Assembly (NCBI GenBank): GCA_020438355.1
Contig: JAGQUT010000002.1
Span: 124,001 to 188,000, forward strand
Direction: 5' to 3'
Length of the DNA stretch: 64,000 nucleotides
Origin: Solirubrobacterales bacterium
Lineage (GTDB): Bacteria; Actinomycetota; Thermoleophilia; Solirubrobacterales; 70-9
The notes beneath the pieces were generated by a model that saw only the letters and a list, made by a program, of their open reading frames with translations, was not told the origin of the DNA and did not search any database. Shown one piece after another: positions 30,318-47,702 of the stretch. Position numbers and translations under genes: made by a program. Position 1 is the first letter of the stretch; the number at the start of each line of letters is the position of its first letter.

Positions 30318-31202
30318 ATGGCCCGCGTCTTGCTGCCTCGATCCAGAAAACCAGTGTCTCTGTTCATCTCTCTGGCCGGCGTACTCCTCGCCTTCGCGCT
30401 GAATGCGTCCCCGGCCATGGCTCTGTCGCTGAATCCGGATGCCGCCTCGCCCGGAATCGAGGACGGAAATACCCTGCATTGGATCCTGTTCGTGGTGATC
30501 CTCGTGGTGATCGTCGCGGTCAACCTCGCGATCCTCAGGGCCGCCCGTCCCCGCACTCGCGCCGTCAGCCCCAAGCAGGGCCGCAACGTGTCCCAGGTCA
30601 AGCTCGCGGTCGGCCTGAGCGTTTTCGCTCTTGCCCTCTTCGTGGTCGCAACGATCTTCTCCGACAAGTCACGGGAGATTCCGGCAGTCAACGCCGAGCC
30701 GGTCGCCGGACAGGTCAAGGGTGAGCCGCTCCAGATCAGGGCCACCGGATCGCAGTGGCTTTGGCGCTTCGACTACCCGAACGCCTCCTTCAGTTACCGC
30801 AGGCTTGTCGTGCCCGCTGGCGTGACGGTCCAGCTCGACCTCGAGTCCACCGACGTCGTCCACGGCTGGAACCTCCCTGAGCTCACCGGCAAGGCACAGG
30901 CGATCCCTGGCAAGACGAACAGCATCTACTTCCGTGCCGATGAGCCCGGCATCTACGAGAACCGCTCATCGATGCTCTCCGGCCAGGGCTACGACACGAT
31001 GGGGATCGAAGTCCACGTCGTACCGCCCGCCGAGTACGAAGCCGCTATCGACCTCCTCCGCAAGGAGATCCAGTTCGCGCAGGACAAGGTTGAAGCCGAG
31101 TTCGAGTTGGAACGCAAGAAATCGGAAATCTCCGAGATGCAGGCCGAGAAGACCGAGAATCAAATCCAGAACAACCAGATCGAAAGCGCTGCCTCAGAAT
31201 GA
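30318..31202 (+). CDS. Cytochrome c oxidase subunit II-like protein lacking CuA ligands
   Basis: 294-residue protein: signal/anchor segment, second membrane helix (about 50-75 and 100-125), cupredoxin domain (about 140-245) and a charged coiled-coil tail (about 250-294). The cupredoxin keeps VVHGWNLPEL (one His), but the CuA loop reads YENRSSMLSGQGYDTM. Both bridging Cys are Ser, the Glu is Met and the second His is Tyr; only the final Met remains. It cannot bind CuA and in this loop resembles quinol-oxidase CyoA. GTG 30354 is an alternative start with a neater signal peptide. First gene of the 30.3-34.3 kb operon; its stop overlaps the next gene (ATGA). Confidence 0.87.
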   Translation: MARVLLPRSRKPVSLFISLAGVLLAFALNASPAMALSLNPDAASPGIEDGNTLHWILFVVILVVIVAVNLAILRAARPRTRAVSPKQGRNVSQVKLAVGLSVFALALFVVATIFSDKSREIPAVNAEPVAGQVKGEPLQIRATGSQWLWRFDYPNASFSYRRLVVPAGVTVQLDLESTDVVHGWNLPELTGKAQAIPGKTNSIYFRADEPGIYENRSSMLSGQGYDTMGIEVHVVPPAEYEAAIDLLRKEIQFAQDKVEAEFELERKKSEISEMQAEKTENQIQNNQIESAASE

Positions 31203-32902
31203 GCCGCACCACCAGCTACCCCCAGTCGATGCCGCCCACCCGGCCCGAGATCTCGTCGGACGGTCCGAAGCCGCGCCAGGCCCGCTGGGCTGAACTCGCC
31301 TCCAGCGCCGATCACAAGGACGTCGGACGGATCCTCATCTCGTCCGCCTTCGGTTCCGTTTTCCTCGCCGCACTCGAACTTCTCCTGCTGAGGCTTCAGC
31401 TTGCGGTTCCCTCCAACGTCTTCCTTGACGGCATCACTTTCGACCGGCTCCTCTCCGTATATGGAGAGACCGCCATCTTCCTGGTCGCGATGCCGCTGAT
31501 CATCGGCCTCCTCTACTACGTGGTGCCGCTTCAGATCGGTGCCCGCACCACCGCGATTCCCCGGGTCGGCCAGATCGGTCTCTGGATGTTCATCTTTGGA
31601 GGCATCCTGCTTTACGGGTCGTTCCTGTTCACGCCCCCGGAAGCCGGAATCAACCCGCTGCCCCCCTTCTCTGACGCGACCTTCTCGCCCAATAACGGTG
31701 TCGACGTCTGGATTACCTCGACCGGACTGGTCACCCTCGGCCTGCTGATGGTCGCGATCGACCTGCTGACCACGCTCCATAACCTTCGCGCCCCGGGCAT
31801 GGCCTGGCGCCGCGCGCCGCTCTTCACCTGGGCCGGAGCCATCGTCACCTGGCTCTTCGTCGTCGTCGCCCCGATCTTCCTCGCGGCCATCACGATGCTG
31901 ATGATCGATCGTCTCGGCGGCGGTGGCTTCTTCGCCGGCGACTCCGGCGGATCCCCGATCCTCTGGCAGCACCTCTCCTACATCTTCTTCACCGCCATCT
32001 ACATGTCGGCCGCGATCACCTTCCTTGCCGCGATCGGCGAAATCGTCCAGACCTTCACCGGCAGGGAGCTGCCCCGCAAGTCGGTCACCCGTTCGATGAT
32101 TGCGATCGCCATCATCGGCACCCTGGCCTGGAGCCAGAACATGCTGACCGCCCCGATCCCGAGCGGCTGGAAGTACTTCGGCATGTTCATGGCAATCGCC
32201 CTGATCGTGCCCTTCGGCCTGATCTTCTACAACCTGATCTCGACCGTCAGCAAGAGCGACTTCCACATGCGGGCTCCGCTTCGTTTCGCTCTCGGAGCCC
32301 TGTCGCTCGCATCGATCGGCCTGGCCGCGGAGATCGCCCAGTCGACAATCGCAGTCGCCACCCAGCTCTCGCAGACCTATGACGCCTGGGCGGCTACACA
32401 CTTCGCGCTGATCGGCTTCGTGGTCTTCGGCGGCTTCGCCGCGGTCACATACTGGTACCCCAAGATGACCGGTCAGCAGCTGAACGAGGACCGGGCGAAC
32501 AAGTCCTTCGGCCTGATGTTCGTCGGAACCCTGATCGCGGTTCTGCCGCTGTTCCTTGCCGGAGTAGCCGGGCAGGTCACCGACTCGTACCGGTACTTCA
32601 GCTTCGAAGACTTCGAGGTCTACAACCTGATCGCCGCGGTCGGCACCCTGATCCTGTTCGTCGGGATCGTGCTCGCCGTCGGGAACCTCATCATGAGCCG
32701 CCACGAAGAGCCGGCTGCCACTCCCGATCCGTATCGGGGCGACTCGCTCGAGTGGCTGGCACTGTCGCCGCCCCCGGCGCACAACTTCGACGTCCTGCCG
32801 GACGTCCGCAGCACCCGACCGATGCGTGACATTCGCGAGGCGATCGTTCGCCGCGACAATGAGACCGCAGAGGCCGAAAGTGCGGCTCAGCCGGTAGCCT
32901 GA
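31199..32902 (+). CDS. Haem-copper oxidase subunit I-like protein with lost haem/CuB ligands
   Basis: 567 residues and about 12-13 helices, clearly homologous to CoxA: SSADHKDVGR at the start, PLQIGARTTAIPRVG, LRAPGMAWRRAPLFTW, GGSPILWQHL and YWYPKMTGQ. The redox ligands are gone. The helix II His (T-x-H-G in CoxA) is Tyr in LLSVYGETAIF. The helix VI His is Thr in HLSYIFFTAIYM. The two helix VII His are Gln-Asn in AWSQNMLT. In helix X (DAWAATHFALIGF) at most one of two His remains. It should not reduce O2. It is coupled to the CuA-less subunit II and followed by ctaB. The intact CoxA at 40-42 kb serves as internal comparison. Confidence 0.88.
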   Translation: MSRTTSYPQSMPPTRPEISSDGPKPRQARWAELASSADHKDVGRILISSAFGSVFLAALELLLLRLQLAVPSNVFLDGITFDRLLSVYGETAIFLVAMPLIIGLLYYVVPLQIGARTTAIPRVGQIGLWMFIFGGILLYGSFLFTPPEAGINPLPPFSDATFSPNNGVDVWITSTGLVTLGLLMVAIDLLTTLHNLRAPGMAWRRAPLFTWAGAIVTWLFVVVAPIFLAAITMLMIDRLGGGGFFAGDSGGSPILWQHLSYIFFTAIYMSAAITFLAAIGEIVQTFTGRELPRKSVTRSMIAIAIIGTLAWSQNMLTAPIPSGWKYFGMFMAIALIVPFGLIFYNLISTVSKSDFHMRAPLRFALGALSLASIGLAAEIAQSTIAVATQLSQTYDAWAATHFALIGFVVFGGFAAVTYWYPKMTGQQLNEDRANKSFGLMFVGTLIAVLPLFLAGVAGQVTDSYRYFSFEDFEVYNLIAAVGTLILFVGIVLAVGNLIMSRHEEPAATPDPYRGDSLEWLALSPPPAHNFDVLPDVRSTRPMRDIREAIVRRDNETAEAESAAQPVA

Positions 32903-32907
32903 ATGTC

Positions 32908-33852
32908 ATGAACTCCGGTGCCGACGCGCGCTCAGCGCGTCACCGGCCGACCGCGCGGCCCGCGCAGTCCGGCCTGCAGCTTGATCTGATCCCGCTCGTG
33001 CGGGATTACATCTCGCTGACCAAGCCGCGGATCATCAGCCTGTTGCTGCTGACCACGGTGGCGACCATGTTCGTCGCCGACCCCGCCGGCCCGGCCCTCT
33101 CGACGATCCTCTGGACCATGCTGGGCGGCTACCTTGCCGCAGGCGGATCCGGTGCGATCAACCACTACATCGACCGGAACAGGGACGCACAGAACCAGCG
33201 GACCAAGGACCGGCCCCTGGCTGACGGACGGGTGAAGCCGATTCACGGCCTCATCTTCGGTATTGCACTCGGTGCCATCTCCTTCATTCAGCTCTGGCTG
33301 ACCGTCAACTTCCTCGCAGCTGCCCTGGCGATGGTCGGACTGTTCGGCTACGTCTTCCTCTACACGCTGTGGCTCAAGCCGCTTACCCCGCAGAACATCG
33401 TGATCGGCGGCAGCGCGGGGGCCGTTCCGCCGCTGGTCGGCTGGGCAGCCGCGACCGGGAGCCTGACCCTGGACGCGATGTGGCCCTTCCTGATCATCTT
33501 CTTCTGGACACCCCCCCATTTCTGGGCGCTATCGCTGATGATCAAGGACGATTACGCGAAGACCGGGGTCCCGATGCTCCCTGTGGTCAAGGGCGAAGAA
33601 GCGACCAGACAGTCGATCCTCATCTACACGATCTTCATGGTCGGATTCACCGTAGGCCCGTACTGCACCGGCCTGCTAGGGCCGCTCTACCTGGCCGCCT
33701 CGGTCGTGCTCGGACTGATCTACACCGGCTTCTCCTTCGCGCTCTGGCGAAAGCCCGGCCCGCGCATCACGCTGCAGGCATACCTTTACTCCCTGGCCTA
33801 CCTGGCCCTGCTGTTCATTTCCATGGCAGTAGCCGCAGTAGCCGCCGCTTAA
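32908..33852 (+). CDS. ctaB: Protohaem IX farnesyltransferase (haem O synthase)
   Basis: 314-residue UbiA-superfamily membrane enzyme that farnesylates haem b to haem O, the first step to haem A for aa3 oxidase. The prenyl-diphosphate motif INHYIDRNRDAQN (N-x-x-x-D-x-x-x-D type, near residue 90) and TKPRIISLLLLTT at helix 1 are typical. ATG 32908 follows the coxA-like stop by 5 bp. Its product would supply CtaA (35.6 kb) and the canonical oxidase facing this operon. Confidence 0.94.
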   Translation: MNSGADARSARHRPTARPAQSGLQLDLIPLVRDYISLTKPRIISLLLLTTVATMFVADPAGPALSTILWTMLGGYLAAGGSGAINHYIDRNRDAQNQRTKDRPLADGRVKPIHGLIFGIALGAISFIQLWLTVNFLAAALAMVGLFGYVFLYTLWLKPLTPQNIVIGGSAGAVPPLVGWAAATGSLTLDAMWPFLIIFFWTPPHFWALSLMIKDDYAKTGVPMLPVVKGEEATRQSILIYTIFMVGFTVGPYCTGLLGPLYLAASVVLGLIYTGFSFALWRKPGPRITLQAYLYSLAYLALLFISMAVAAVAAA

Positions 33853-34873: not shown

Positions 34874-35590
34874 ATGAAGAAGAACAAGTTGTCGACCAAG
34901 CTGCCCGTCCTCCTCGCCTCCGTTGCCATCCTTGGCGCGGTCATCGCCGGTTGTGGTTCGTCCTCATCGAACTCCGACCCGGAGGAGCTCGGGTTTCAGG
35001 ATCGTGGCCGTCAGCTCTTCAACGCCAACTGCGGAACCTGCCACGTCCTTGCCCATGCGGCGAGCACCGGGGTCCAGGGTCCGAACCTTGACGACGCCTT
35101 TGCTGCAGCCCGGCTCGCCGGCATGGATGACGACACCATTCAGGGTGTGGTTCGCGCCCAGGTGATCCGCCCGCAGGAAGTCCAGCCCGGCTACCCGGGA
35201 ATCGCGATGCCGGCAAACATCCTCGAAGGCAATGACCTTGAAGATGTCGCCGCCTACGTCGCTGCCGTCGCGGGTGTCCCCGGTATCCAGCCCCCCGAAG
35301 CTCCTGGCGAGGGTCCCGGCGCCCAGGTTTACGCCAACAATGGCTGTGGAAGCTGCCATGTTCTCGCGGCCGCCCAGTCGGCCGGCAACCTCGGGCCGAA
35401 TCTCGACGAGGTCATCCCCGACATGACCGAGGCCGAGATCCGCCAGTCGATCGTGAACCCCGGCGCCGTCATCGCCCCGGGTTACCCGAACGCAATGCCC
35501 TCCGACTACGGCACCAAGATCAGCCCCGAGGAGCTGAATCAGCTGATCGACTTCCTCGTCACATCAGCTGCGGCTGATGGCCAGAGCTGA
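34874..35590 (+). CDS. Dihaem class I cytochrome c lipoprotein
   Basis: 238-residue exported protein. The signal peptide ends in a lipobox (VIAGC, Cys27), so it is anchored as a lipoprotein outside the membrane. Two cytochrome c domains follow, each with a C-x-x-C-H haem site (CGTCHVL near 55, CGSCHVL near 160) and a downstream Met ligand (GIAMPANI, NAMPSDYG). It is well placed to carry electrons to the canonical aa3 oxidase, or to pair with the oxidase-like operon. Its 3' end overlaps ctaA by 14 bp. Confidence 0.92.
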   Translation: MKKNKLSTKLPVLLASVAILGAVIAGCGSSSSNSDPEELGFQDRGRQLFNANCGTCHVLAHAASTGVQGPNLDDAFAAARLAGMDDDTIQGVVRAQVIRPQEVQPGYPGIAMPANILEGNDLEDVAAYVAAVAGVPGIQPPEAPGEGPGAQVYANNGCGSCHVLAAAQSAGNLGPNLDEVIPDMTEAEIRQSIVNPGAVIAPGYPNAMPSDYGTKISPEELNQLIDFLVTSAAADGQS

Positions 35591-36554
35591 TTCCCGCCTG
35601 CTGGACCGCATCCGGCAGTTCAGCATTTCGCCTGAGCGCTATCAGGTCATAACCCTGATCGCGCTCATCACGCTGGTGGGGATCGTCTTCACCGGTGCGG
35701 GCGTCCGACTCACCGCCTCCGGACTTGGATGCCCGGACTGGCCCAAGTGTTATGGCGGCTACGTAGCCCCGGCCCAGATCAACGCCTGGATCGAGTACGG
35801 GAACCGGCTCCTGACCGGGATCGTCTCCATCGCGGTCATTGCGGCCTGCCTGCTTGCCTTCTTCCGCCGCCCGTACCGCAAGCACCTCGTCTGGATCGGT
35901 GCGCTCCTTCCGCTCGGAGTCATCGGCCAGATCGTGCTCGGAGCCTTCGTCGTCTACTACCACCTGCCTCCCGAGCTGGTCATCTTCCACTTCATCCTGT
36001 CGATGATCCTGATCGATGCGGCCTTCGCTCTCTGCTGGTGCTCCAGGTACGAGCCGGGAGAGCGCAGGTACTCGACGGACTGGGTCAGCACCTGGGCCGT
36101 ACGGGCGTTGATCCCGGTCGGCCAGTTGACCATCTTCCTCGGCACGATCACCACCGCCTCCGGGCCCCATCCGGGGGACCACAACGAAGAACTGGTGAGA
36201 AGATTCGACTTCAAGGGAGTCGACACTCTCGAGTGGATCGTCCAGCGCCACGCCGCAATGGCCGTAATCTTCGCTCTCTCTGTCGTAGCCGTGATCTTTA
36301 TCGTGCGCCGCAAGGGCGGCGACTCCAGGGCCCAGAAGCCCCTATTCGTGACCCTCGGCATGATCTGCCTCCAGATCGGCATCGGGATCCTTCAGTGGCA
36401 GCTTCACCTGCCGGCCTGGCTGGTCTGGTGCCACGTCGCCCTCGCAACGCTTCTCTGGGTCGCGGTTCTCTGGTCGGTGGCCACCGCCGGGCAGATCACT
36501 CCAGGCACCAAGGGCGCGCTCCGTCGCCACCCGGACCCGGCCGTCTCGAATTAG
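35577..36554 (+). CDS. ctaA: Haem A synthase (COX15/CtaA family)
   Basis: 325-residue membrane enzyme with eight predicted helices that oxidises haem O to haem A. Family motifs are GLGCPDWPKCYGGYVAP near residue 50, EYGNRLLTGIVS (E-x-x-x-R), YYHLPPELVIFHF, ASGPHPGDHN and QRHAAMAV, which supply the haem-binding His residues. It begins inside the cytochrome c gene (14-bp overlap), implying coupling. With ctaB it provides haem A for the canonical oxidase. Confidence 0.94.
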   Translation: MARADSRLLDRIRQFSISPERYQVITLIALITLVGIVFTGAGVRLTASGLGCPDWPKCYGGYVAPAQINAWIEYGNRLLTGIVSIAVIAACLLAFFRRPYRKHLVWIGALLPLGVIGQIVLGAFVVYYHLPPELVIFHFILSMILIDAAFALCWCSRYEPGERRYSTDWVSTWAVRALIPVGQLTIFLGTITTASGPHPGDHNEELVRRFDFKGVDTLEWIVQRHAAMAVIFALSVVAVIFIVRRKGGDSRAQKPLFVTLGMICLQIGIGILQWQLHLPAWLVWCHVALATLLWVAVLWSVATAGQITPGTKGALRRHPDPAVSN

Positions 36555-38581: not shown

Positions 38582-39208
38582 TCAGATGATGTAGATCGCC
38601 AGGAACACGATGATCCACATGATGTCGACGAAGTGCCAGTAGATGCCTGGTACCTCGACACCGAGGTGGTCCTTCTGTTCCGGACCGAAGTGGCCGCGGT
38701 AGGCGCGAATGTTGGCGAAGGTCAAGAGCAGCAGGCCAACGAAGACGTGGGCGCCGTGGAGCCCGGTGAGGCTGAAGAAGATCGAACCGAAGGCACCGTC
38801 ACGCGGCGTGAAGCCGATGTGGATGTACTCGTTGATCTGGATGAAGAGGAAGGTCGCGCCGAGGAGCCAGGTCGTGGTCAGGCCGAGCTTCAGACCGCGA
38901 TGGTTGTTGTGCTTGATCGCCTCGAGCGCGTAGTGGATCGTGAACGAGGAGGAAACCAGGATGCAGGTGTTGATGCCGGCGATCAGGACCGGGAGCTCGA
39001 CGCCCTCCGGCGGCCAGGAGGCCGGATCGGCGACGACCCGCAGGAAGAAGTAGGCGGCGAAGAAGGCGCCGAACAGCATCACCTCGGAAAGGATGAAAAG
39101 CAGGATGCCGAGGATCGTGCGGTCGATGCGGGCGCTCTGATGCGCCTCGGGCGGGCCGTGATGGTGGTCGTCGACGTGACCGTGGGCGGCGATGCTTGCG
39201 CTTTCCAT
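38582..39208 (-). CDS. coxC: Cytochrome c oxidase subunit III
   Basis: 208-residue protein with five predicted membrane helices. Signatures are TILGILLFILSEVMLFGAFFAAYFFLR (split here by a loop), RDGAFGSIFFSLTGLHGAHV and the C-terminal YWHFVDIMWIIVFLAIYI. It is the short, five-helix form found in actinobacteria. It lies between the small membrane protein and the universal-stress-like gene in the coxB-coxA operon. Confidence 0.95.
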   Translation of the reverse strand: MESASIAAHGHVDDHHHGPPEAHQSARIDRTILGILLFILSEVMLFGAFFAAYFFLRVVADPASWPPEGVELPVLIAGINTCILVSSSFTIHYALEAIKHNNHRGLKLGLTTTWLLGATFLFIQINEYIHIGFTPRDGAFGSIFFSLTGLHGAHVFVGLLLLTFANIRAYRGHFGPEQKDHLGVEVPGIYWHFVDIMWIIVFLAIYII

Positions 39209-39210
39209 CT

Positions 39211-40116
39211 CTATGCCTCGTTCTCTTCCGCGGTTGAATCTTCAGCGCCAGCGGCTTCGGGAGCCTCGCCCTCGGCGACCACGGCAGCGACGGCCTCCGG
39301 CGGGCGGCCGGCCTCGTGGTGGACCACGGGCTTCTCGGTGATCTCGCGCACCCGGCCGATCAGGTCTTCCTTCAGCCAGTGGGACTCTTCACCGCTCAGG
39401 GTCGAAATCAGGATCTCGTCAACCCGGTAATGCTCGATCGCGTTCTTCACTGCGTCGAACGGGTCCGGGCTCATCGGCTGGCCCGTGGCGTCGATGTCGG
39501 CGTGGTAGAGCTTGGCCATGACGGTCGCCAGGTTCCGGGCAACGGTGGCCTCGGAAACATCGTCGGCGGCCGGAGCGATGATCGTGTACCGGTGGGGACG
39601 CTCGCCGGAGCGGTCGAGCAGACGCTCCTGAAGGTCCTCGGAGGTAAGGGTCCGGTTGGCGACGACCAGGGTGTGGGTCACGTTCAGGCTGATCGAGTCG
39701 TCCTCGATCCGAACCGGAATGTGGGTGATGTTGGTCACGTCGCCGTAGGTGATCTCGGCCCAGGAGAGCAGGTCGCGCCTGGTCAGGCCGAAACGGAAGT
39801 CATAGGTGCAGGAAAGCAGAACCTCGCCCGGGCGATGGCTGCGAATCGCGTCGCCGAGGGCCAGGTCGTACTCGGGGTCGAGCACTTCGCCGATCGCCTC
39901 GATGCCGAACTCGTCGAGCACGGCGAGGGTCACGTCAACCCGGGCCCGGGCCGCTTCCGCCCTTTCCTCGGGATCGAAGAGCTGACCGACCGAAGGCTGA
40001 TTCTGCGGGGCGACGACCACCACGTAGGAGGCGTCGGCCGCCTTTTCGCGGGCCGCCTCGAGCAGCTTGCGGCCGCCGGCGACCTCGTTCAGGAAAATCA
40101 GAAGGGGCTTGCTCAT
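39211..40116 (-). CDS. Tandem universal stress protein-like protein
   Basis: 301-residue cytosolic protein with two alpha/beta domains of the UspA fold (about residues 1-135 and 145-270) and an Ala/Glu-rich tail. Strand starts MSKPLLIFLNEVAGG and HRYTIIAPAADD, and the paired VDEILISTLSGEESHWL near the end, fit the fold; the classic ATP loop (G-x-x-G-x9-G-S/T) is not clear. ATG 40116 overlaps the coxA stop (ATGA), so it is made together with the oxidase. The role is unknown; sensing or assembly is inference. Confidence 0.75.
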   Translation of the reverse strand: MSKPLLIFLNEVAGGRKLLEAAREKAADASYVVVVAPQNQPSVGQLFDPEERAEAARARVDVTLAVLDEFGIEAIGEVLDPEYDLALGDAIRSHRPGEVLLSCTYDFRFGLTRRDLLSWAEITYGDVTNITHIPVRIEDDSISLNVTHTLVVANRTLTSEDLQERLLDRSGERPHRYTIIAPAADDVSEATVARNLATVMAKLYHADIDATGQPMSPDPFDAVKNAIEHYRVDEILISTLSGEESHWLKEDLIGRVREITEKPVVHHEAGRPPEAVAAVVAEGEAPEAAGAEDSTAEENEA

Positions 40117-42026
40117 GACGGCGCAGTCACCGTGCTGGGCTGGGTTTCGGGCACTTCCGCCCCTTCGCCTTCGCCGCCCATGATCGCGTGACGCGCACCC
40201 GGCGTGCCGTACTCGTAGGGACCGCCGACGACCCGCGGGATCTCGTCGAAGTTGAAGACCGGCGGCGGCGAAGAGACCTGCCACTCGATCGAGTTCGCGC
40301 GCCACGGGTTGTTGCCCGCCTTCGGGCCGAACCGCCAGCTGACGATCATGTTGTAGAGGAAGATCAGCTGGACCGCACCGAGCACGAAGGCCGAGACGGA
40401 AATCAGCAGGTTCCAGTTGCCGTACTGCGTCGCGTAATCGGCGACACGGCGGGGCATGCCATCCATCCCGATCCAGTGCATCGGGACGAAGGTCATCCAG
40501 GTACCGACCAGCGTGCCCCAGAAGTGGATCCGGCCGAGTCGCTCGTCATACATGCGTCCGGTCATCTTCGGGAACCAGTGATAGATGCCGGCGAAGATGG
40601 TGAATACCGAGCCGCCGAAGAGCACGAAGTGGATGTGGGCGACGATGAAGTAGGTGTCCGAGACGTGGATGTCGAGCGGGATCATGGCGGTCATCACGCC
40701 GGAGATTCCGCCGACGGTGAAGGTGATGATGAAGGCCAGCGAGAACAGCATCGCCGTCGAATAGGTGTGGATCTTCCCGTAGAAGAGCGTGCCCAGCCAG
40801 GAGAAGACCTTGATGCCGGTCGGTACCGCGATCAACATCGTGGTGATCATGATCGGCACTCGCAGCCAGCTGAACATGCCGGCGACGAACATGTGGTGCG
40901 CCCAGACCGAGTAGGAGAGCACGACGATGCCGATCAGGGCGAGGGCCATGAGCCGGTAGCCGAAGACCGGCTTTCGGGCATGGGTGGAAATGATCTCGGA
41001 GATGATCCCGAAGCCGGGCAACATCATGATGTAGACGGCTGGGTGCGAATAGAACCAGAAGATGTGCTGGTAGGAGATGACGTCGCCGCCCTCGAGGAAG
41101 TTGAAGAAGTTCATCCCGAGGATGCGGTCGAAGAAGACCATGAACTGGGCACCGGCCACAAACGGGGTGGCACCGACGACCAGCAGCGAGGTCGAAAGGT
41201 TGGCCCAGACCAGCAGCGGCATGCGCCACAGGTTCATTCCGGGCGCACGCATGGTGATGATCGTGACCAGGAAGTTGAGAGCGGTTGCAATGGATGACGC
41301 ACCCGCGAACTGCACGCCTATGTTGAAGAAGGATTGCCCTAATGGGGCGCCGGTAGAGAGTGGCGCGTAGCCGGTCCAGCCAGCGTCAAAGGCGCCGCCG
41401 GGAACCAGGAAGCTGGCCAGGAAGATGATGCCTGCGATCGGCAGGAGCCAGAACGAGAGGGCGTTCAGTCTCGGGAACGCCATGTCCGGCGCGCCGATCA
41501 TCAGCGGAAGTACGTAGTTGGCGAGTCCTGCGAAGACCGGAATGATGAAAAGGAAGATCATCACCACGGCGTGAGTCGAGAAAAGGCCGTTGTAGGTGTT
41601 GGCGGCGACGATCTGGCCGCCGGGCTGCGCCAGCTCGGCGCGGATCAGGAGGGCAAGCAGACCACCGATCAGGAAGAAGATCATGGTGGTGACGACGTAC
41701 TGGGTGCCGATCACCTTGTGGTCGGTGTTGAACTTGAAGTAGTCCTTCCAGCTGAAAGCGCCATGTCCCGAGTGATCTTCAGGGATCGTCGGCTTGCCGG
41801 CTGCCCAGCGGAACCAGTAGTCAAAGGCACCAAAACCGAACAGGAAGCCGAACGGGGCGGTGATCAGCGGGACGATTACGTGCGGGTAACCGGTCTGCTC
41901 GGTCTGGTACAGGTCCAGGCCGGAGATCGCGCGAAGCGCGATAACGAGAACAAATCCGAAAGCCGCGCCAAGGACGGTGCCGATTGCCGCTCGGTACCAA
42001 CCCGGCTGCCTGATTGCCGCTGCCAT
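40113..42026 (-). CDS. coxA: Cytochrome c oxidase subunit I (A2-type)
   Basis: 637-residue catalytic subunit of aa3 oxidase. All ligands are present: helix II His (FSTHAVVM), helix VI SHPAVYIM (YSHP pattern of A2 enzymes in place of HPEVY), helix VII WAHHMFVAG for CuB, and helix X VAHIHFVLFGG for both haems. An extra N-terminal region of about 100 residues has two additional helices (residues about 10-30 and 48-70) before the usual DHKVIGTQY. It transfers electrons from CuA to O2 and pumps protons. It follows coxB and overlaps the universal-stress-like gene. Confidence 0.96.
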   Translation of the reverse strand: MAAAIRQPGWYRAAIGTVLGAAFGFVLVIALRAISGLDLYQTEQTGYPHVIVPLITAPFGFLFGFGAFDYWFRWAAGKPTIPEDHSGHGAFSWKDYFKFNTDHKVIGTQYVVTTMIFFLIGGLLALLIRAELAQPGGQIVAANTYNGLFSTHAVVMIFLFIIPVFAGLANYVLPLMIGAPDMAFPRLNALSFWLLPIAGIIFLASFLVPGGAFDAGWTGYAPLSTGAPLGQSFFNIGVQFAGASSIATALNFLVTIITMRAPGMNLWRMPLLVWANLSTSLLVVGATPFVAGAQFMVFFDRILGMNFFNFLEGGDVISYQHIFWFYSHPAVYIMMLPGFGIISEIISTHARKPVFGYRLMALALIGIVVLSYSVWAHHMFVAGMFSWLRVPIMITTMLIAVPTGIKVFSWLGTLFYGKIHTYSTAMLFSLAFIITFTVGGISGVMTAMIPLDIHVSDTYFIVAHIHFVLFGGSVFTIFAGIYHWFPKMTGRMYDERLGRIHFWGTLVGTWMTFVPMHWIGMDGMPRRVADYATQYGNWNLLISVSAFVLGAVQLIFLYNMIVSWRFGPKAGNNPWRANSIEWQVSSPPPVFNFDEIPRVVGGPYEYGTPGARHAIMGGEGEGAEVPETQPSTVTAPS

Positions 42027-42063: not shown

Positions 42064-42879
42064 TCATTCTTCAATGACCCCGCTTCCTTCAATGCCCCCG
42101 GACTGCTCTTCTTTTTTCGCCTGGGCTTCGCGGTACTGATCGCCGGTCAGCAACAGGTCCTCAGGAACCTCAGTCGTCTGCTTCTTCAGCCAGGCTTCAT
42201 ATTCTTCCTGGGACTGGACGACTACGAGCGCACGCATCGTCGTGTGTCCGACGCCGCAGAGTTCGACGCAGATCAGAGGGTATGTCCCTTCCTTGTCCGG
42301 CGTGACGATCACTTCAGTTGCCAGACCCGGCACGGCGTCCATCTTGATGCGCCAATCGGGGACCCAGAAGGAGTGGATCACGTCCTGGGCCTGAAGATCA
42401 ACGATCAGCTGGCGATTGACGGGAACGTGAAGGATGCCCTCGGACCACTTGTTGCCGTCTTCGGGGTAACCGAAGGTCCAGGCGAACTGCTGGGCGTACG
42501 CGTTGACCCGTACCGCGTTGTCGTCCTTCTTCTCGATGTCGTTCAGGACGGCCCACGAGTAACCGCCGAGGCCGAGGACGATGATCACCGGAATGATTGT
42601 CCAGATGATCTCCAGCTTGGTGTTGCCGTGGATCGGGAGCCCGTCACTCTCGTCTCCTGGCTTGGCCCTCCACTTGATCAGTGCGTAGCCAAGCGCGACG
42701 CAGACGATCGCGAAGACGAAGGAGGAAATTACGACGGTCACATCCAGCAGCGTGTCGATCGGTCCGGCTTCGACGGAAGCGTCATCGCCGAACCAGTTGA
42801 ACTGCAGCAGGATCACGGACTGGATTACGCCAAGGACGATCGTGGCGAGCACCATTTTCAAAATCGGGAGACGAGTCAT
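42064..42879 (-). CDS. coxB: Cytochrome c oxidase subunit II
   Basis: 271-residue subunit with two N-terminal helices and a cupredoxin domain. The CuA site is intact: DVIHSFWVPDW (His) and LICVELCGVGHTTM (Cys, Glu, Cys, His, Met). It accepts electrons from cytochrome c at the outer face of the membrane. First gene of the minus-strand oxidase operon, 37 bp before coxA. No fused cytochrome c domain, so the dihaem lipoprotein at 34.9 kb is a natural donor. Confidence 0.95.
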   Translation of the reverse strand: MTRLPILKMVLATIVLGVIQSVILLQFNWFGDDASVEAGPIDTLLDVTVVISSFVFAIVCVALGYALIKWRAKPGDESDGLPIHGNTKLEIIWTIIPVIIVLGLGGYSWAVLNDIEKKDDNAVRVNAYAQQFAWTFGYPEDGNKWSEGILHVPVNRQLIVDLQAQDVIHSFWVPDWRIKMDAVPGLATEVIVTPDKEGTYPLICVELCGVGHTTMRALVVVQSQEEYEAWLKKQTTEVPEDLLLTGDQYREAQAKKEEQSGGIEGSGVIEE

Positions 42880-45001: not shown

Positions 45002-45856
45002 CTACCGGGCCACGACAGTGGCCTTGTAGAGCAGCCTTCCGCCGTCGTAGTAGCAGCCGTAGCGCTTGGTCGAGTTGACCTTCTGCTGTGGCCTTGACTT
45101 CTGGAGCGCCTCGTTCGGCCGGTCGAAGGCATCGGTCTTGATGATGCATTTCCCAGGAGCCCGGCTTCCTCTCCAAGTGTTGAACCGTTGGGCCCTCGCG
45201 CAGGTGGCAGGGACCGCATAGTTTCCGGTCGCGTCCTGGTTGCACGCCCTCGGAACCCAGAACGCCGGTGCCCAGGTCGGAATCGTCAGCGCGACGATGT
45301 CCCCGCGGATCACGTTCAGCGGCCTGATCGCGAACTTGACCTCGGTGCCGAAATAGGAATTCAGGGTCTGGGTGCCGCTGGCCCTGATCAGGCGGTAGCG
45401 GGGCGGAAATTTTGGACCGTTGTTCACCTGACGGAGGATCGAGATCCGTGCCCTCGACGGGGAACCGAACAGCCGGTTGAAGTAAGGACGCTGGGCGGCG
45501 CCGTATCGCCGGCTTGCCTTGCGGGTCGGATTCGAAAGCTGGATCGACCAGGCGACCACCTTGCCCCGGTTGAAGGGGACGACGAAGTTCCTGCCGTTAG
45601 CCCCCCGCTGTAAGACCTGGAACCCGGTCACCTTTCCCTCGGCGATGCAGGCCCGTGATGTCGCGCGGGTCCCGCAGTTGGGAGTGACCTTGTTCTTGGT
45701 CGCCCCGAGGAGGACGCGGCGGTTGCTCTTTCCGTCCGCCTGACCGAAAACTCCAACGAAAGCAAGGCAGGCGAACAGACCCAGAATGGCTGCGGTGAGC
45801 GCGCCGAGGCGAAAGACCGGGCGGCTCACAATCGGTTGTGAACGGTTTTCGGCCAT
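45002..45856 (-). CDS. Secreted hypothetical protein, paralogue of 46793-47641
   Basis: 284-residue protein with an N-terminal signal/anchor segment (about 15-40) and a beta-rich-looking mature region with six or more cysteines. It shares with the gene at 46793 the blocks GRNFVVPF, VAWSIQLSNPTR, ISILRQV, VALTIPTWAPAFW, TWRGSR and the C-terminal RYGCYYDGGRLLY. No known domain. The family appears to be a local expansion (two intact genes and one remnant within 2.7 kb); surface role is inferred from the signal peptide. Confidence 0.72.
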   Translation of the reverse strand: MAENRSQPIVSRPVFRLGALTAAILGLFACLAFVGVFGQADGKSNRRVLLGATKNKVTPNCGTRATSRACIAEGKVTGFQVLQRGANGRNFVVPFNRGKVVAWSIQLSNPTRKASRRYGAAQRPYFNRLFGSPSRARISILRQVNNGPKFPPRYRLIRASGTQTLNSYFGTEVKFAIRPLNVIRGDIVALTIPTWAPAFWVPRACNQDATGNYAVPATCARAQRFNTWRGSRAPGKCIIKTDAFDRPNEALQKSRPQQKVNSTKRYGCYYDGGRLLYKATVVAR

Positions 45857-46182: not shown

Positions 46183-46695
46183 CTACAAAATGTTGACCTC
46201 TTCGCACCCTTGAACAGAATCCACTGAGTTGACGTAACAGACGTCGTACCCAGCGTTTCCGTAAACCTCGTCTCTCACCCCGTCTCCATGAGCGAAGATT
46301 TGGTCGTTGTCATCATTGCCGTAAAGGTCGTCTGAACCGCCCTCTCCATAGATCCGATCGTTCCCGGGGCCCCCGTAGACTTCGTCGTTACCTGCGCCTC
46401 CGGAAAGCACAAAAACGATGGGGTCAGGCCCGATGCCGCCGATACCTTCCGTGCAGCTGGAGTAACTCCCGCTGTCATTGCCGGGTCCTCCGTAAACCGT
46501 GTCGGCACCATCGAAACCGTATATTCGGTCAGGAGCCCCGAATCCACTGATTGTGTCTGCGCTGCTGGTCCCGCCCAGGCACTCCCGGTCATTGGTGCCA
46601 TCGATCACAGCAGCATTCGCCGCGGTCGAGAACAAACACGTCAGAGCCAGAAAACCGACCACGATCGCAACGGCAGCCTTGTGAAGCGACTTCAT
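46183..46695 (-). CDS. Small secreted RTX-like calcium-binding protein
   Basis: 170-residue exported protein with a signal peptide (residues 1-28, A-N-A cleavage) and hemolysin-type nonapeptide repeats. Examples are GADTVYGGPGNDSG, GNDEVYGGPGNDRIYGEGG and SDDLYGNDDND, of the G-G-x-G-x-D pattern that binds Ca2+ in a beta-roll. A terminal region with two Cys (VCYVNSVDSVQGCEEV) caps it. It is much shorter than RTX toxins and has no enzymatic domain, so it is more likely a surface or adhesive protein. The signal peptide suggests Sec rather than type I export. Confidence 0.85.
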   Translation of the reverse strand: MKSLHKAAVAIVVGFLALTCLFSTAANAAVIDGTNDRECLGGTSSADTISGFGAPDRIYGFDGADTVYGGPGNDSGSYSSCTEGIGGIGPDPIVFVLSGGAGNDEVYGGPGNDRIYGEGGSDDLYGNDDNDQIFAHGDGVRDEVYGNAGYDVCYVNSVDSVQGCEEVNIL

Positions 46696-46792: not shown

Positions 46793-47641
46793 TCAGCGTC
46801 CGACAATCAACGCTGAGTAAAGCAGCACGTTGCTGCCGTAGTAGCAACCATAACGCCGAGTTGAGTTGATCCGAGTTTGAGGCGCAGATTTCTCAAGTTG
46901 ATCGGTGATGTTGCCGCTAGCGTCGGTGAGCCCGCAAGTCGGGGGATCATCCTGTGGCACCCTGCTGCCGCGCCAGGTAAACGACTCTTCGGCTCTATCG
47001 CAGGCGACCGGGTTCAGAATCCCGGGTTCGAAAGCGGTGCTGTTGCAGGCCTTGGGCTTCCAGAGCGCTGGTGCCCAAGTCGGAATGGTTAGCGCAACCA
47101 CGTTGCCCTCGAAGACGTTCAGCGGCGGCTCAACCGCGAATGTCACCTTGGAACCGAAGTACGGGTTCAGGATCTTGACCTCGGACTTCCTCACCAGTTT
47201 GAACTTCGGCCCACCCTTTTTTCGCTTTTCGACTTGTCGCAGAATCGACACACCTGCCTGGGAAGGCGTACCGAACAACGCGTTGAAGAACGGAAGCTGA
47301 GCTCCGTTGCTATCGACATCTACCCGAGTTGGCCTGGACAATGAAATCGACCAGGCGACCAACTTGCCGTTGAAGGGCACCACGAAGTTCCTGCCTGGGT
47401 AGCGGGCCGAAAGCGACTGAAAAGCCGTGATCTTGCCCTCGACGGTGCAGTCACGGCTGAAGTCCTTGCCGCAGTTGGGCTTGAGCGTGTTTATGTTCCG
47501 TGCGCCGAGCTCGATCCGCTTGGTGGATTTCGCTTCAGCAAGCGGGCTGGTGGCCAGCAGCAGGGCGGCTGCGAGGGCGGCAAGGAGCATCAGGATCCGG
47601 GCGGCCCGGAGGCCGTCTGTTGTGAGGGGGGAGCGAAGCAT
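46793..47641 (-). CDS. Secreted hypothetical protein, paralogue of 45002-45856
   Basis: 282-residue protein with a signal peptide (hydrophobic run ILMLLAALAAALLLA, cleavage near LAEA-KS). Conserved blocks shared with the 45-kb paralogue include KPNCGKDF, GRNFVVPFNGKLVAWS, VSILRQVEK, VALTIPTWAPALW, TWRGSR and RYGCYYGSNVLLYS. Eight or so cysteines suggest disulfides. ATG 47641 is chosen; a TTG ten codons upstream is possible. No recognised domain or function. Confidence 0.72.
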   Translation of the reverse strand: MLRSPLTTDGLRAARILMLLAALAAALLLATSPLAEAKSTKRIELGARNINTLKPNCGKDFSRDCTVEGKITAFQSLSARYPGRNFVVPFNGKLVAWSISLSRPTRVDVDSNGAQLPFFNALFGTPSQAGVSILRQVEKRKKGGPKFKLVRKSEVKILNPYFGSKVTFAVEPPLNVFEGNVVALTIPTWAPALWKPKACNSTAFEPGILNPVACDRAEESFTWRGSRVPQDDPPTCGLTDASGNITDQLEKSAPQTRINSTRRYGCYYGSNVLLYSALIVGR

Positions 47642-47702
47642 CGAATACTGGAACACGGTTGGGTGCCTCAATGTTGCGCTTCGGTGCCCTTTCGGGCTCC
47701 GG

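What the first reader, a model, noticed from the sequence alone, without database searches (positions are those of the whole stretch)
31199..32902. Subunit I-like haem-copper oxidase protein stripped of its redox ligands
The protein aligns along its whole length with CoxA (shared RAPGM, PILWQHL and PKMTG blocks), yet the helix II His is Tyr, the helix VI His is Thr and the helix VII His-His is Gln-Asn. In helix X, ungapped alignment from PKMTG leaves one His, at the low-spin haem position; alignment from FGG leaves none. An intact CoxA in the same window rules out a genome-wide oddity. The frame is undamaged and coupled to other genes, so it is maintained. A non-catalytic oxidase-fold protein would be a new function for this superfamily: proton channel, assembly factor, or haem/quinone carrier.
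Basis: partly seen in the sequence, partly recalled or inferred. Interest (0 to 1): 0.88.

Follow-up and report, generated by a model that had tools for sequence, protein, structure and literature searches.

The report
Metal-free cytochrome oxidase pair, kept intact
This bacterium and its whole family keep, next to a normal respiratory oxidase, a second oxidase whose two core proteins have lost nearly every metal- and heme-binding residue yet are still preserved by selection, so a respiratory enzyme has apparently become a purely structural or helper complex.

Summary
Window 31199-32902 (+) encodes a full-length subunit I (CoxA*) in which five of six heme/CuB histidines and the active-site Tyr are gone; only the helix X low-spin His remains. 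D- and K-channel residues and both heme-propionate arginines are lost too.

All 35 orthologues sampled in its Solirubrobacterales family share the loss; positional orthologues in two sister families keep every ligand in both subunits. CoxA and CoxB states never disagree between loci. Purifying selection persists (dN/dS 0.11-0.19, near the neighbouring heme O synthase gene). A second, recent loss lies inside a genus whose other species are intact. A separate class of Actinomycetota carries its own ligand-less CoxA between ctaB and a normal oxidase operon. A ligand-less COX1 kept with ctaB is already reported in Acetobacter (PMC10715153).

Best reading: a cofactor-free pseudo-oxidase acting as a structural or assembly scaffold near heme O/A synthesis and the real oxidase. 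Non-catalytic status is strongly supported; the partner is inferred. Proton-channel and heme-carrier readings are disfavoured. New variant of a known kind.

The parts
30318..31202 (+). CoxB*: subunit II-like protein with the CuA site lost (Cys, Cys, Glu and one His replaced; one His and the Met kept); start codon approximate (open frame from 30165)
   Evidence: PF00116 E 3.9e-15; below the TIGR02866 CoxB cut-off, 124.2 against 147.7 bits; CuA residues by alignment; cupredoxin fold predicted
31199..32902 (+). CoxA*: subunit I-like protein without heme a3/CuB ligands, with one of two low-spin heme ligands
   Evidence: COX1 E 2.7e-77; half the score of the TIGR02891 CtaD cut-off, 336.6 against 670.75; ligands; fold; dN/dS
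32908..33852 (+). ctaB, heme O synthase, 5 nt behind CoxA*
   Evidence: NF003349 heme o synthase, 339.4 bits against cut-off 246; single match in the genome
33993..34277 (+). small protein, two predicted membrane helices by eye; at the position of a small membrane protein in intact f2 operons; possible subunit IV-like part
   Evidence: no Pfam family above cut-off; conserved next to ctaB in the genus and some f1 genera; dN/dS 0.07-0.19 among close species
34874..35590 (+). diheme c-type cytochrome (context)
   Evidence: PF00034, PF13442, two stretches each
35577..36554 (+). ctaA, heme A synthase (context; directly behind coxA* in several f1 and f4 genera)
   Evidence: PF02628 E 1.9e-28; single copy in the genome; order
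42064..42879 (-). canonical coxB with CuA intact (comparison)
   Evidence: sequence and alignment
40113..42026 (-). canonical coxA with all ligands (comparison)
   Evidence: COX1 E 6.7e-150; HHYHHHH
38582..39208 (-). coxC, the only subunit III gene of the genome
   Evidence: PF00510 E 7.1e-41; one match in G000

Best explanation
CoxA* and CoxB* are subunits I and II of what was a second aa3-type cytochrome c oxidase. They have lost all redox cofactor sites (heme a pair, heme a3-CuB, CuA) and both proton channels, but kept the fold, the pairing and the operon with heme O synthase. SHOWN: ligand loss in both subunits together, retention across a family, purifying selection, recurrence in other lineages, predicted oxidase fold. 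INFERRED: the two still assemble into a cofactor-free complex in the membrane, which works as a non-redox scaffold: a dummy oxidase core that docks or stabilises the heme O/A synthases and/or assembly intermediates of the single real aa3 oxidase, much as CydB is a cofactor-free partner of CydA. That it is a selected, non-catalytic pseudo-oxidase: about 0.9. The specific scaffold role near CtaB/CtaA and the real oxidase: about 0.4, which is the confidence given here.
For: Five of six His, the Tyr, both proton channels and propionate Arg lost in 35/35. CoxB* loses CuA in every locus where CoxA* loses its ligands: 37 lost/lost, 18 intact/intact, 0 mixed. dN/dS 0.11-0.19, no stops. AlphaFold2 keeps the oxidase fold, TM about 0.85 to CtaD of the actinobacterial III2-IV2 supercomplex. 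Tight coupling to ctaB, in some genera to ctaA. Independent ligand-less CoxA next to ctaB in another actinobacterial class and, by literature, in Acetobacter, where stabilising CtaB was proposed (PMC10715153). Paracoccus subunit I lacking heme still builds a four-subunit complex (PMC5249081). CydB precedent (PMC8951039).
Against: Linkage to ctaB is ancestral: intact orthologues have the same order, so it is weak evidence of a new role. No interaction, expression or deletion data. G018, a 97% complete relative, lacks CoxA*, CoxB*, CtaB and COX3 yet keeps canonical coxA-coxB, so the pair is dispensable somewhere, unless the assembly lacks that stretch. New invariant residues (Q313-N314, R83, E378, D462) could mean a different, unguessed activity.
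Confidence: 0.4

Rival explanations
1. Respiratory supercomplex subunit: CoxA*/CoxB* form a heteromer with canonical aa3 or with bc1 and stabilise the supercomplex, with no part in heme supply.
For: Best structural matches are supercomplex CtaD chains, though those are simply the nearest actinobacterial structures. Canonical and degenerate operons lie close together. One COX3 for two cores. A structural role was proposed for a deranged bc1 complex in acidophilic Acetobacteraceae (PMC10715153).
Against: The same single COX3 is found where the second oxidase is intact. No interface evidence.
Confidence: 0.25
2. A new non-redox membrane function, such as a sensor or a lipid/quinone-binding protein, using the former heme cavity and the CoxB* outer domain as receptor.
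For: New family-wide invariants at former catalytic sites: Gln-Asn at the CuB His pair, Asp for the propionate Arg (33 of 35), Glu378, Arg83. In E. coli CydB a quinone fills the place of the hemes (PMC8951039).
Confidence: 0.15
3. Decaying relic: the second oxidase became useless and the frames are open only because too little time has passed, or because ctaB translation needs an open upstream frame.
For: Canonical oxidase present; faster evolution than intact CoxA; G018 lacks the pair; the single G198 copy changed fast (130 against 18 replacements).
Against: 12 genera without stops; dN/dS 0.11-0.19 and 0.16-0.27; invariant new residues; small genomes that would be expected to delete useless genes. 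Translational coupling would not conserve amino acids.
Confidence: 0.06
4. Proton or ion channel in the oxidase fold.
For: 12-helix fold kept.
Against: D-channel Asp 0/35 and K-channel Lys 0/35.
Confidence: 0.03
5. Heme carrier or heme a donor using the remaining low-spin site.
For: Helix X low-spin His kept in 22 of 35; the G198, L232 and L234 copies keep the full low-spin pair.
Against: The helix II His is lost in the whole window family, and the helix X His too in many genera.
Confidence: 0.06

Closest known systems
Deranged COX1-like (CtaD) protein of Acetobacter kept with ctaB (PMC10715153, citing Matsutani et al. 2014)
   Same: Oxidase subunit I lacking the cofactor-binding residues, retained in a cluster with ctaB; a structural role was suggested.
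   Different: Alphaproteobacteria that lost the aa3 oxidase; here the family keeps a working aa3 oxidase, subunit II is degenerate as well, and selection and repeated loss are measured.
A-type aa3 cytochrome c oxidase subunits I and II (CtaD/CtaC)
   Same: Fold, length, gene pairing, C-terminal LEW..SPP..NFD motif; intact positional orthologues in sister families.
   Different: No heme a3/CuB site, no bis-His heme a, no CuA, no D/K channels; far below the curated family cut-offs.
CydB of cytochrome bd (PMC8951039)
   Same: Works-like analogue: a cofactor-free homologue of a heme-bearing oxidase subunit that serves structure.
   Different: Unrelated fold; CydB is an obligate partner inside one enzyme.
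Quinol oxidase subunit II without CuA (CyoA/QoxA; PMC9145763 on B. subtilis aa3)
   Same: Subunit II that lost CuA.
   Different: There subunit I stays a full oxidase. CoxB* scores far below CyoA and QoxA cut-offs.
Ligand-less CoxA in the ctaB-coxA*-coxC*-coxB-coxA-coxC operon of other Actinomycetota (L224-L232, L234, L137)
   Same: Ligand-less CoxA beside ctaB and near an intact oxidase.
   Different: Very divergent; helix VII His pair mostly deleted; it has its own weak COX3 relative and no CoxB* of its own.

Membership tests
A-type heme-copper oxygen reductase, subunit I | 12-helix COX1 fold | tested here: met
   Pfam COX1 full length; pTM 0.83, TM about 0.85 to known CtaD
A-type heme-copper oxygen reductase, subunit I | six His ligands of heme a, heme a3 and CuB | tested here: not met
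   one of six left in the window protein
A-type heme-copper oxygen reductase, subunit I | active-site Tyr in helix VI | tested here: not met
   Met in the window protein; no Tyr in any of 35
A-type heme-copper oxygen reductase, subunit I | D- and K-channel key residues | tested here: not met
   Asp 0/35, Lys 0/35
A-type heme-copper oxygen reductase, subunit I | curated CtaD_CoxA score (TIGR02891) | tested here: not met
   336.6 against 670.75 bits; note that the intact window CoxA also falls just short at 661
Cytochrome c oxidase subunit II with CuA | CuA ligands (2 Cys, 2 His, Met, Glu backbone) | tested here: not met
   Both Cys, Glu and one His lost; one His and Met kept
Cytochrome c oxidase subunit II with CuA | membrane helices plus cupredoxin domain | tested here: met
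   PF00116; model pLDDT 84 matching subunit II chains
Ligand-less COX1-like protein kept with ctaB (Acetobacter type) | cofactor ligands lost in an open frame | tested here: met
Ligand-less COX1-like protein kept with ctaB (Acetobacter type) | retained in one cluster with ctaB | tested here: met
Ligand-less COX1-like protein kept with ctaB (Acetobacter type) | common descent with the Acetobacter protein after ligand loss | not testable with these tools
   no named Acetobacter genome could be fetched; descent from intact Solirubrobacterales oxidases is shown instead
Pseudogene | broken frame or dN/dS near 1 | tested here: not met
   no stops in family copies; dN/dS 0.11-0.19

The most novel reading that the evidence does not exclude
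Cofactor-free heme-copper oxidase complexes are a recurrent class of respiratory pseudoenzyme. They arose at least twice in Solirubrobacterales, again in another actinobacterial class and in Acetobacter, each time from an oxidase encoded beside heme O synthase, and their common job is to organise heme A supply or assembly for the cell's working terminal oxidase.
Probability: 0.3. Interest if true: 0.82.

Novelty: new variant of a known kind. Interest (0 to 1): 0.63.

Why it matters
Heme-copper oxidases are treated as defined by their ligands, and annotation counts such genes as terminal oxidases. Here a complete I-II pair has been stripped of its redox sites yet is under purifying selection in a whole family, and the same change is caught early inside one genus (G198 beside intact G197 and G199). 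That gives a natural series for asking which non-redox function of the oxidase fold is worth keeping, and it bears on how heme A reaches subunit I, an open question in oxidase biogenesis. It also warns that COX1/COX2 counts in genomes can overstate oxygen reductases.

Tried and rejected
Sequencing error or assembly artefact: rejected, the state recurs in 35 assemblies. Relocated ligands: rejected, no new conserved His/Cys/Met set in the membrane. Unrelated lateral gene: rejected, same gene neighbourhood as the intact orthologues. Independent loss in f4: not established. f1 and f4 group together (100/100, on long branches), share the HSS.YM CuA pattern, and a canonical CoxA tree does not reject their kinship (p-AU 0.416), so I count them as probably one loss. 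A first quick tree also placed L106 and L137 with the degenerate rows; with G197 and G199 added, L106 moved into its own otherwise intact genus. YN00 failed on most pairs, so NG86 dN/dS is reported. Most literature searches gave nothing on ligand-less oxidases until led to PMC10715153.

Full report
WHAT IS THERE. Window 31199-32902 (+) is an undamaged 567-codon frame that matches COX1 over its whole length (E 2.7e-77) and the intact CoxA of the same window at 28% identity. The pairwise and the multiple alignment agree on the ligand columns: helix II His to Tyr; helix VI His to Thr; helix VII His-His to Gln-Asn; helix X a3 His to Ala; helix X low-spin His kept. Lost as well are the helix VI tyrosine, the D-channel Asp and Asn, the K-channel Lys and both propionate Arg.

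THE PARTNER. The upstream gene overlaps CoxA* by four bases and is a subunit II (PF00116, E 3.9e-15). Its CuA site has Ser for both Cys, Tyr for one His and another residue for the Glu; one His and the Met remain. The canonical operon on the other strand (coxB 42064-42879, coxA, coxC) is intact, and the genome holds two COX1 and one COX3. So a whole second oxidase core, not one protein, has lost its metals. CoxA* is followed 5 bases later by ctaB (heme O synthase), then a small membrane protein, and after a convergent CBS gene by a diheme cytochrome c and ctaA.

DISTRIBUTION. All 35 f1 copies examined are ligand-less, across 12 genera, with Gln-Asn invariant in helix VII and other positions drifting. 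In families f2 and f3 the gene in the same neighbourhood (trxB, a membrane protein, often PAP2, coxB, coxA, ctaB, CBS) is an intact oxidase in 20 of 20 copies, and the further copies read are intact apart from the one described next. Genus g15 of family f4 is ligand-less too (5 of 5), although four of five keep the helix VI His. CoxA and CoxB states never disagree: 37 lost/lost and 18 intact/intact loci, plus the g44 trio below.

RECENT LOSS. In genus g44 of f2, G197 and G199 are intact in both subunits, while G198 has Gln, Ser, Arg and Gln at the CuB and a3 positions, keeps both low-spin heme a His, and has lost the CuA Cys. Canonical CoxA of G198 and G197 is 97.2% identical and CtaB 92%, but the second CoxA only 67%: 130 lineage-specific replacements in G198 against 18 in G197, with no stop and a pairwise dN/dS of 0.19. 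The tree nests G198 within g44 at full support. This is a loss independent of f1. It rests on one MAG, but the canonical and degenerate operons lie on the same contig.

SECOND CLASS. A search with a divergent degenerate copy (in L137) found ligand-less CoxA in five other actinobacterial families (f30, f45, f69, f76, f79), all outside the window's class. They sit in one arrangement: ctaB, coxA*, a weak COX3 relative, an unknown membrane protein, then ordinary coxB-coxA-coxC, with ctaA divergent from ctaB in most. The helix VI His is lost in all, and the helix VII His-His falls in a deletion or is replaced. Two of them (L232, L234) still have both helix X His and the helix II His, that is, both heme positions but no CuB ligands. 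So stages of loss exist; the order CuB first, then heme a3, then low-spin heme is my inference from these stages.

SELECTION. For pairs at least 86% identical within the window genus, NG86 dN/dS is 0.11-0.19 for CoxA*, 0.16-0.27 for CoxB*, 0.10-0.13 for CtaB and 0.05-0.10 for intact CoxA. dS is high, so these ratios are if anything overestimates. The protein is constrained about as much as a neighbouring enzyme. New invariant or nearly invariant residues (R83, Q313, N314, L375, E378, D462, H528, D535) point to a changed, not absent, set of constraints.

STRUCTURE. AlphaFold2 on the family alignment gives an oxidase fold (pLDDT 77, pTM 0.83), closest to the CtaD of the Corynebacterium III2-IV2 supercomplex (TM about 0.85, 30% identity). 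CoxB* gives membrane helices and a cupredoxin domain (pLDDT 84) matching subunit II. Sequence conservation gives no sign of relocated ligands.

HOW IT MAY WORK. Paracoccus subunit I that fails to receive heme still assembles into a four-subunit complex (PMC5249081), so a cofactor-free core can exist. CydB is a known cofactor-free homologue of a heme subunit (PMC8951039). The Acetobacter case, a COX1-like protein lacking all ligands kept in a cluster with ctaB, was proposed to stabilise CtaB (PMC10715153). Putting these together I favour a non-redox scaffold near CtaB/CtaA and the working oxidase. The weakness is that ctaB linkage is ancestral here. G018 is a possible natural test: canonical coxA-coxB remain, but CoxA*, CoxB*, CtaB and COX3 are not found, and unrelated genes follow its coxA. 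Either that block was lost together or the assembly lacks it; I cannot tell which.

VERDICT. Observation confirmed and extended to the whole I-II pair. New variant of a known kind.

Noticed in passing
L224 7123-8907, L225 7358-9052, L226 8163-9890, L227 7922-9556, L228-L232, L234 4402-6048, L137 1433-3232: A separate, very divergent family of ligand-less CoxA in other Actinomycetota, always between ctaB and a weak COX3 relative, an unknown membrane protein and a normal coxB-coxA-coxC set.
   Followed up: partly
L106/L152/L233 (G198) compared with L182 (G197) and L183 (G199): Loss of CuB, heme a3 and CuA ligands within one genus, caught while relatives are intact: canonical CoxA 97% identical, second CoxA 67%.
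   Followed up: yes
L067 (G018:C2:70000-82000): A 97% complete family member lacks CoxA*, CoxB*, CtaB and COX3 but keeps canonical coxA-coxB; unrelated genes follow coxA. Deletion or missing assembly.
   Followed up: partly
window 39211-40305 (-): A protein of universal-stress-protein appearance (not run against Pfam) sits between canonical coxA and coxC; relatives lie behind coxA in other genomes too (cluster 14).
   Followed up: no
window 45002-45856 and 46793-47671 (-); L067 10668-11408 (-): Two neighbouring secreted-looking proteins related to each other by eye, with a relative near canonical coxB in another genus; no function assigned.
   Followed up: no
window 46183-46695 (-): Small secreted-looking protein with GGxGND-type repeats between those two genes.
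   Followed up: no
L070 3799-5790 and L072 3526-5421: A further full-ligand COX1 of another type occurs sporadically, including in an f1 member (G034), so ligand-less CoxA* can coexist with two intact oxidases.
   Followed up: no
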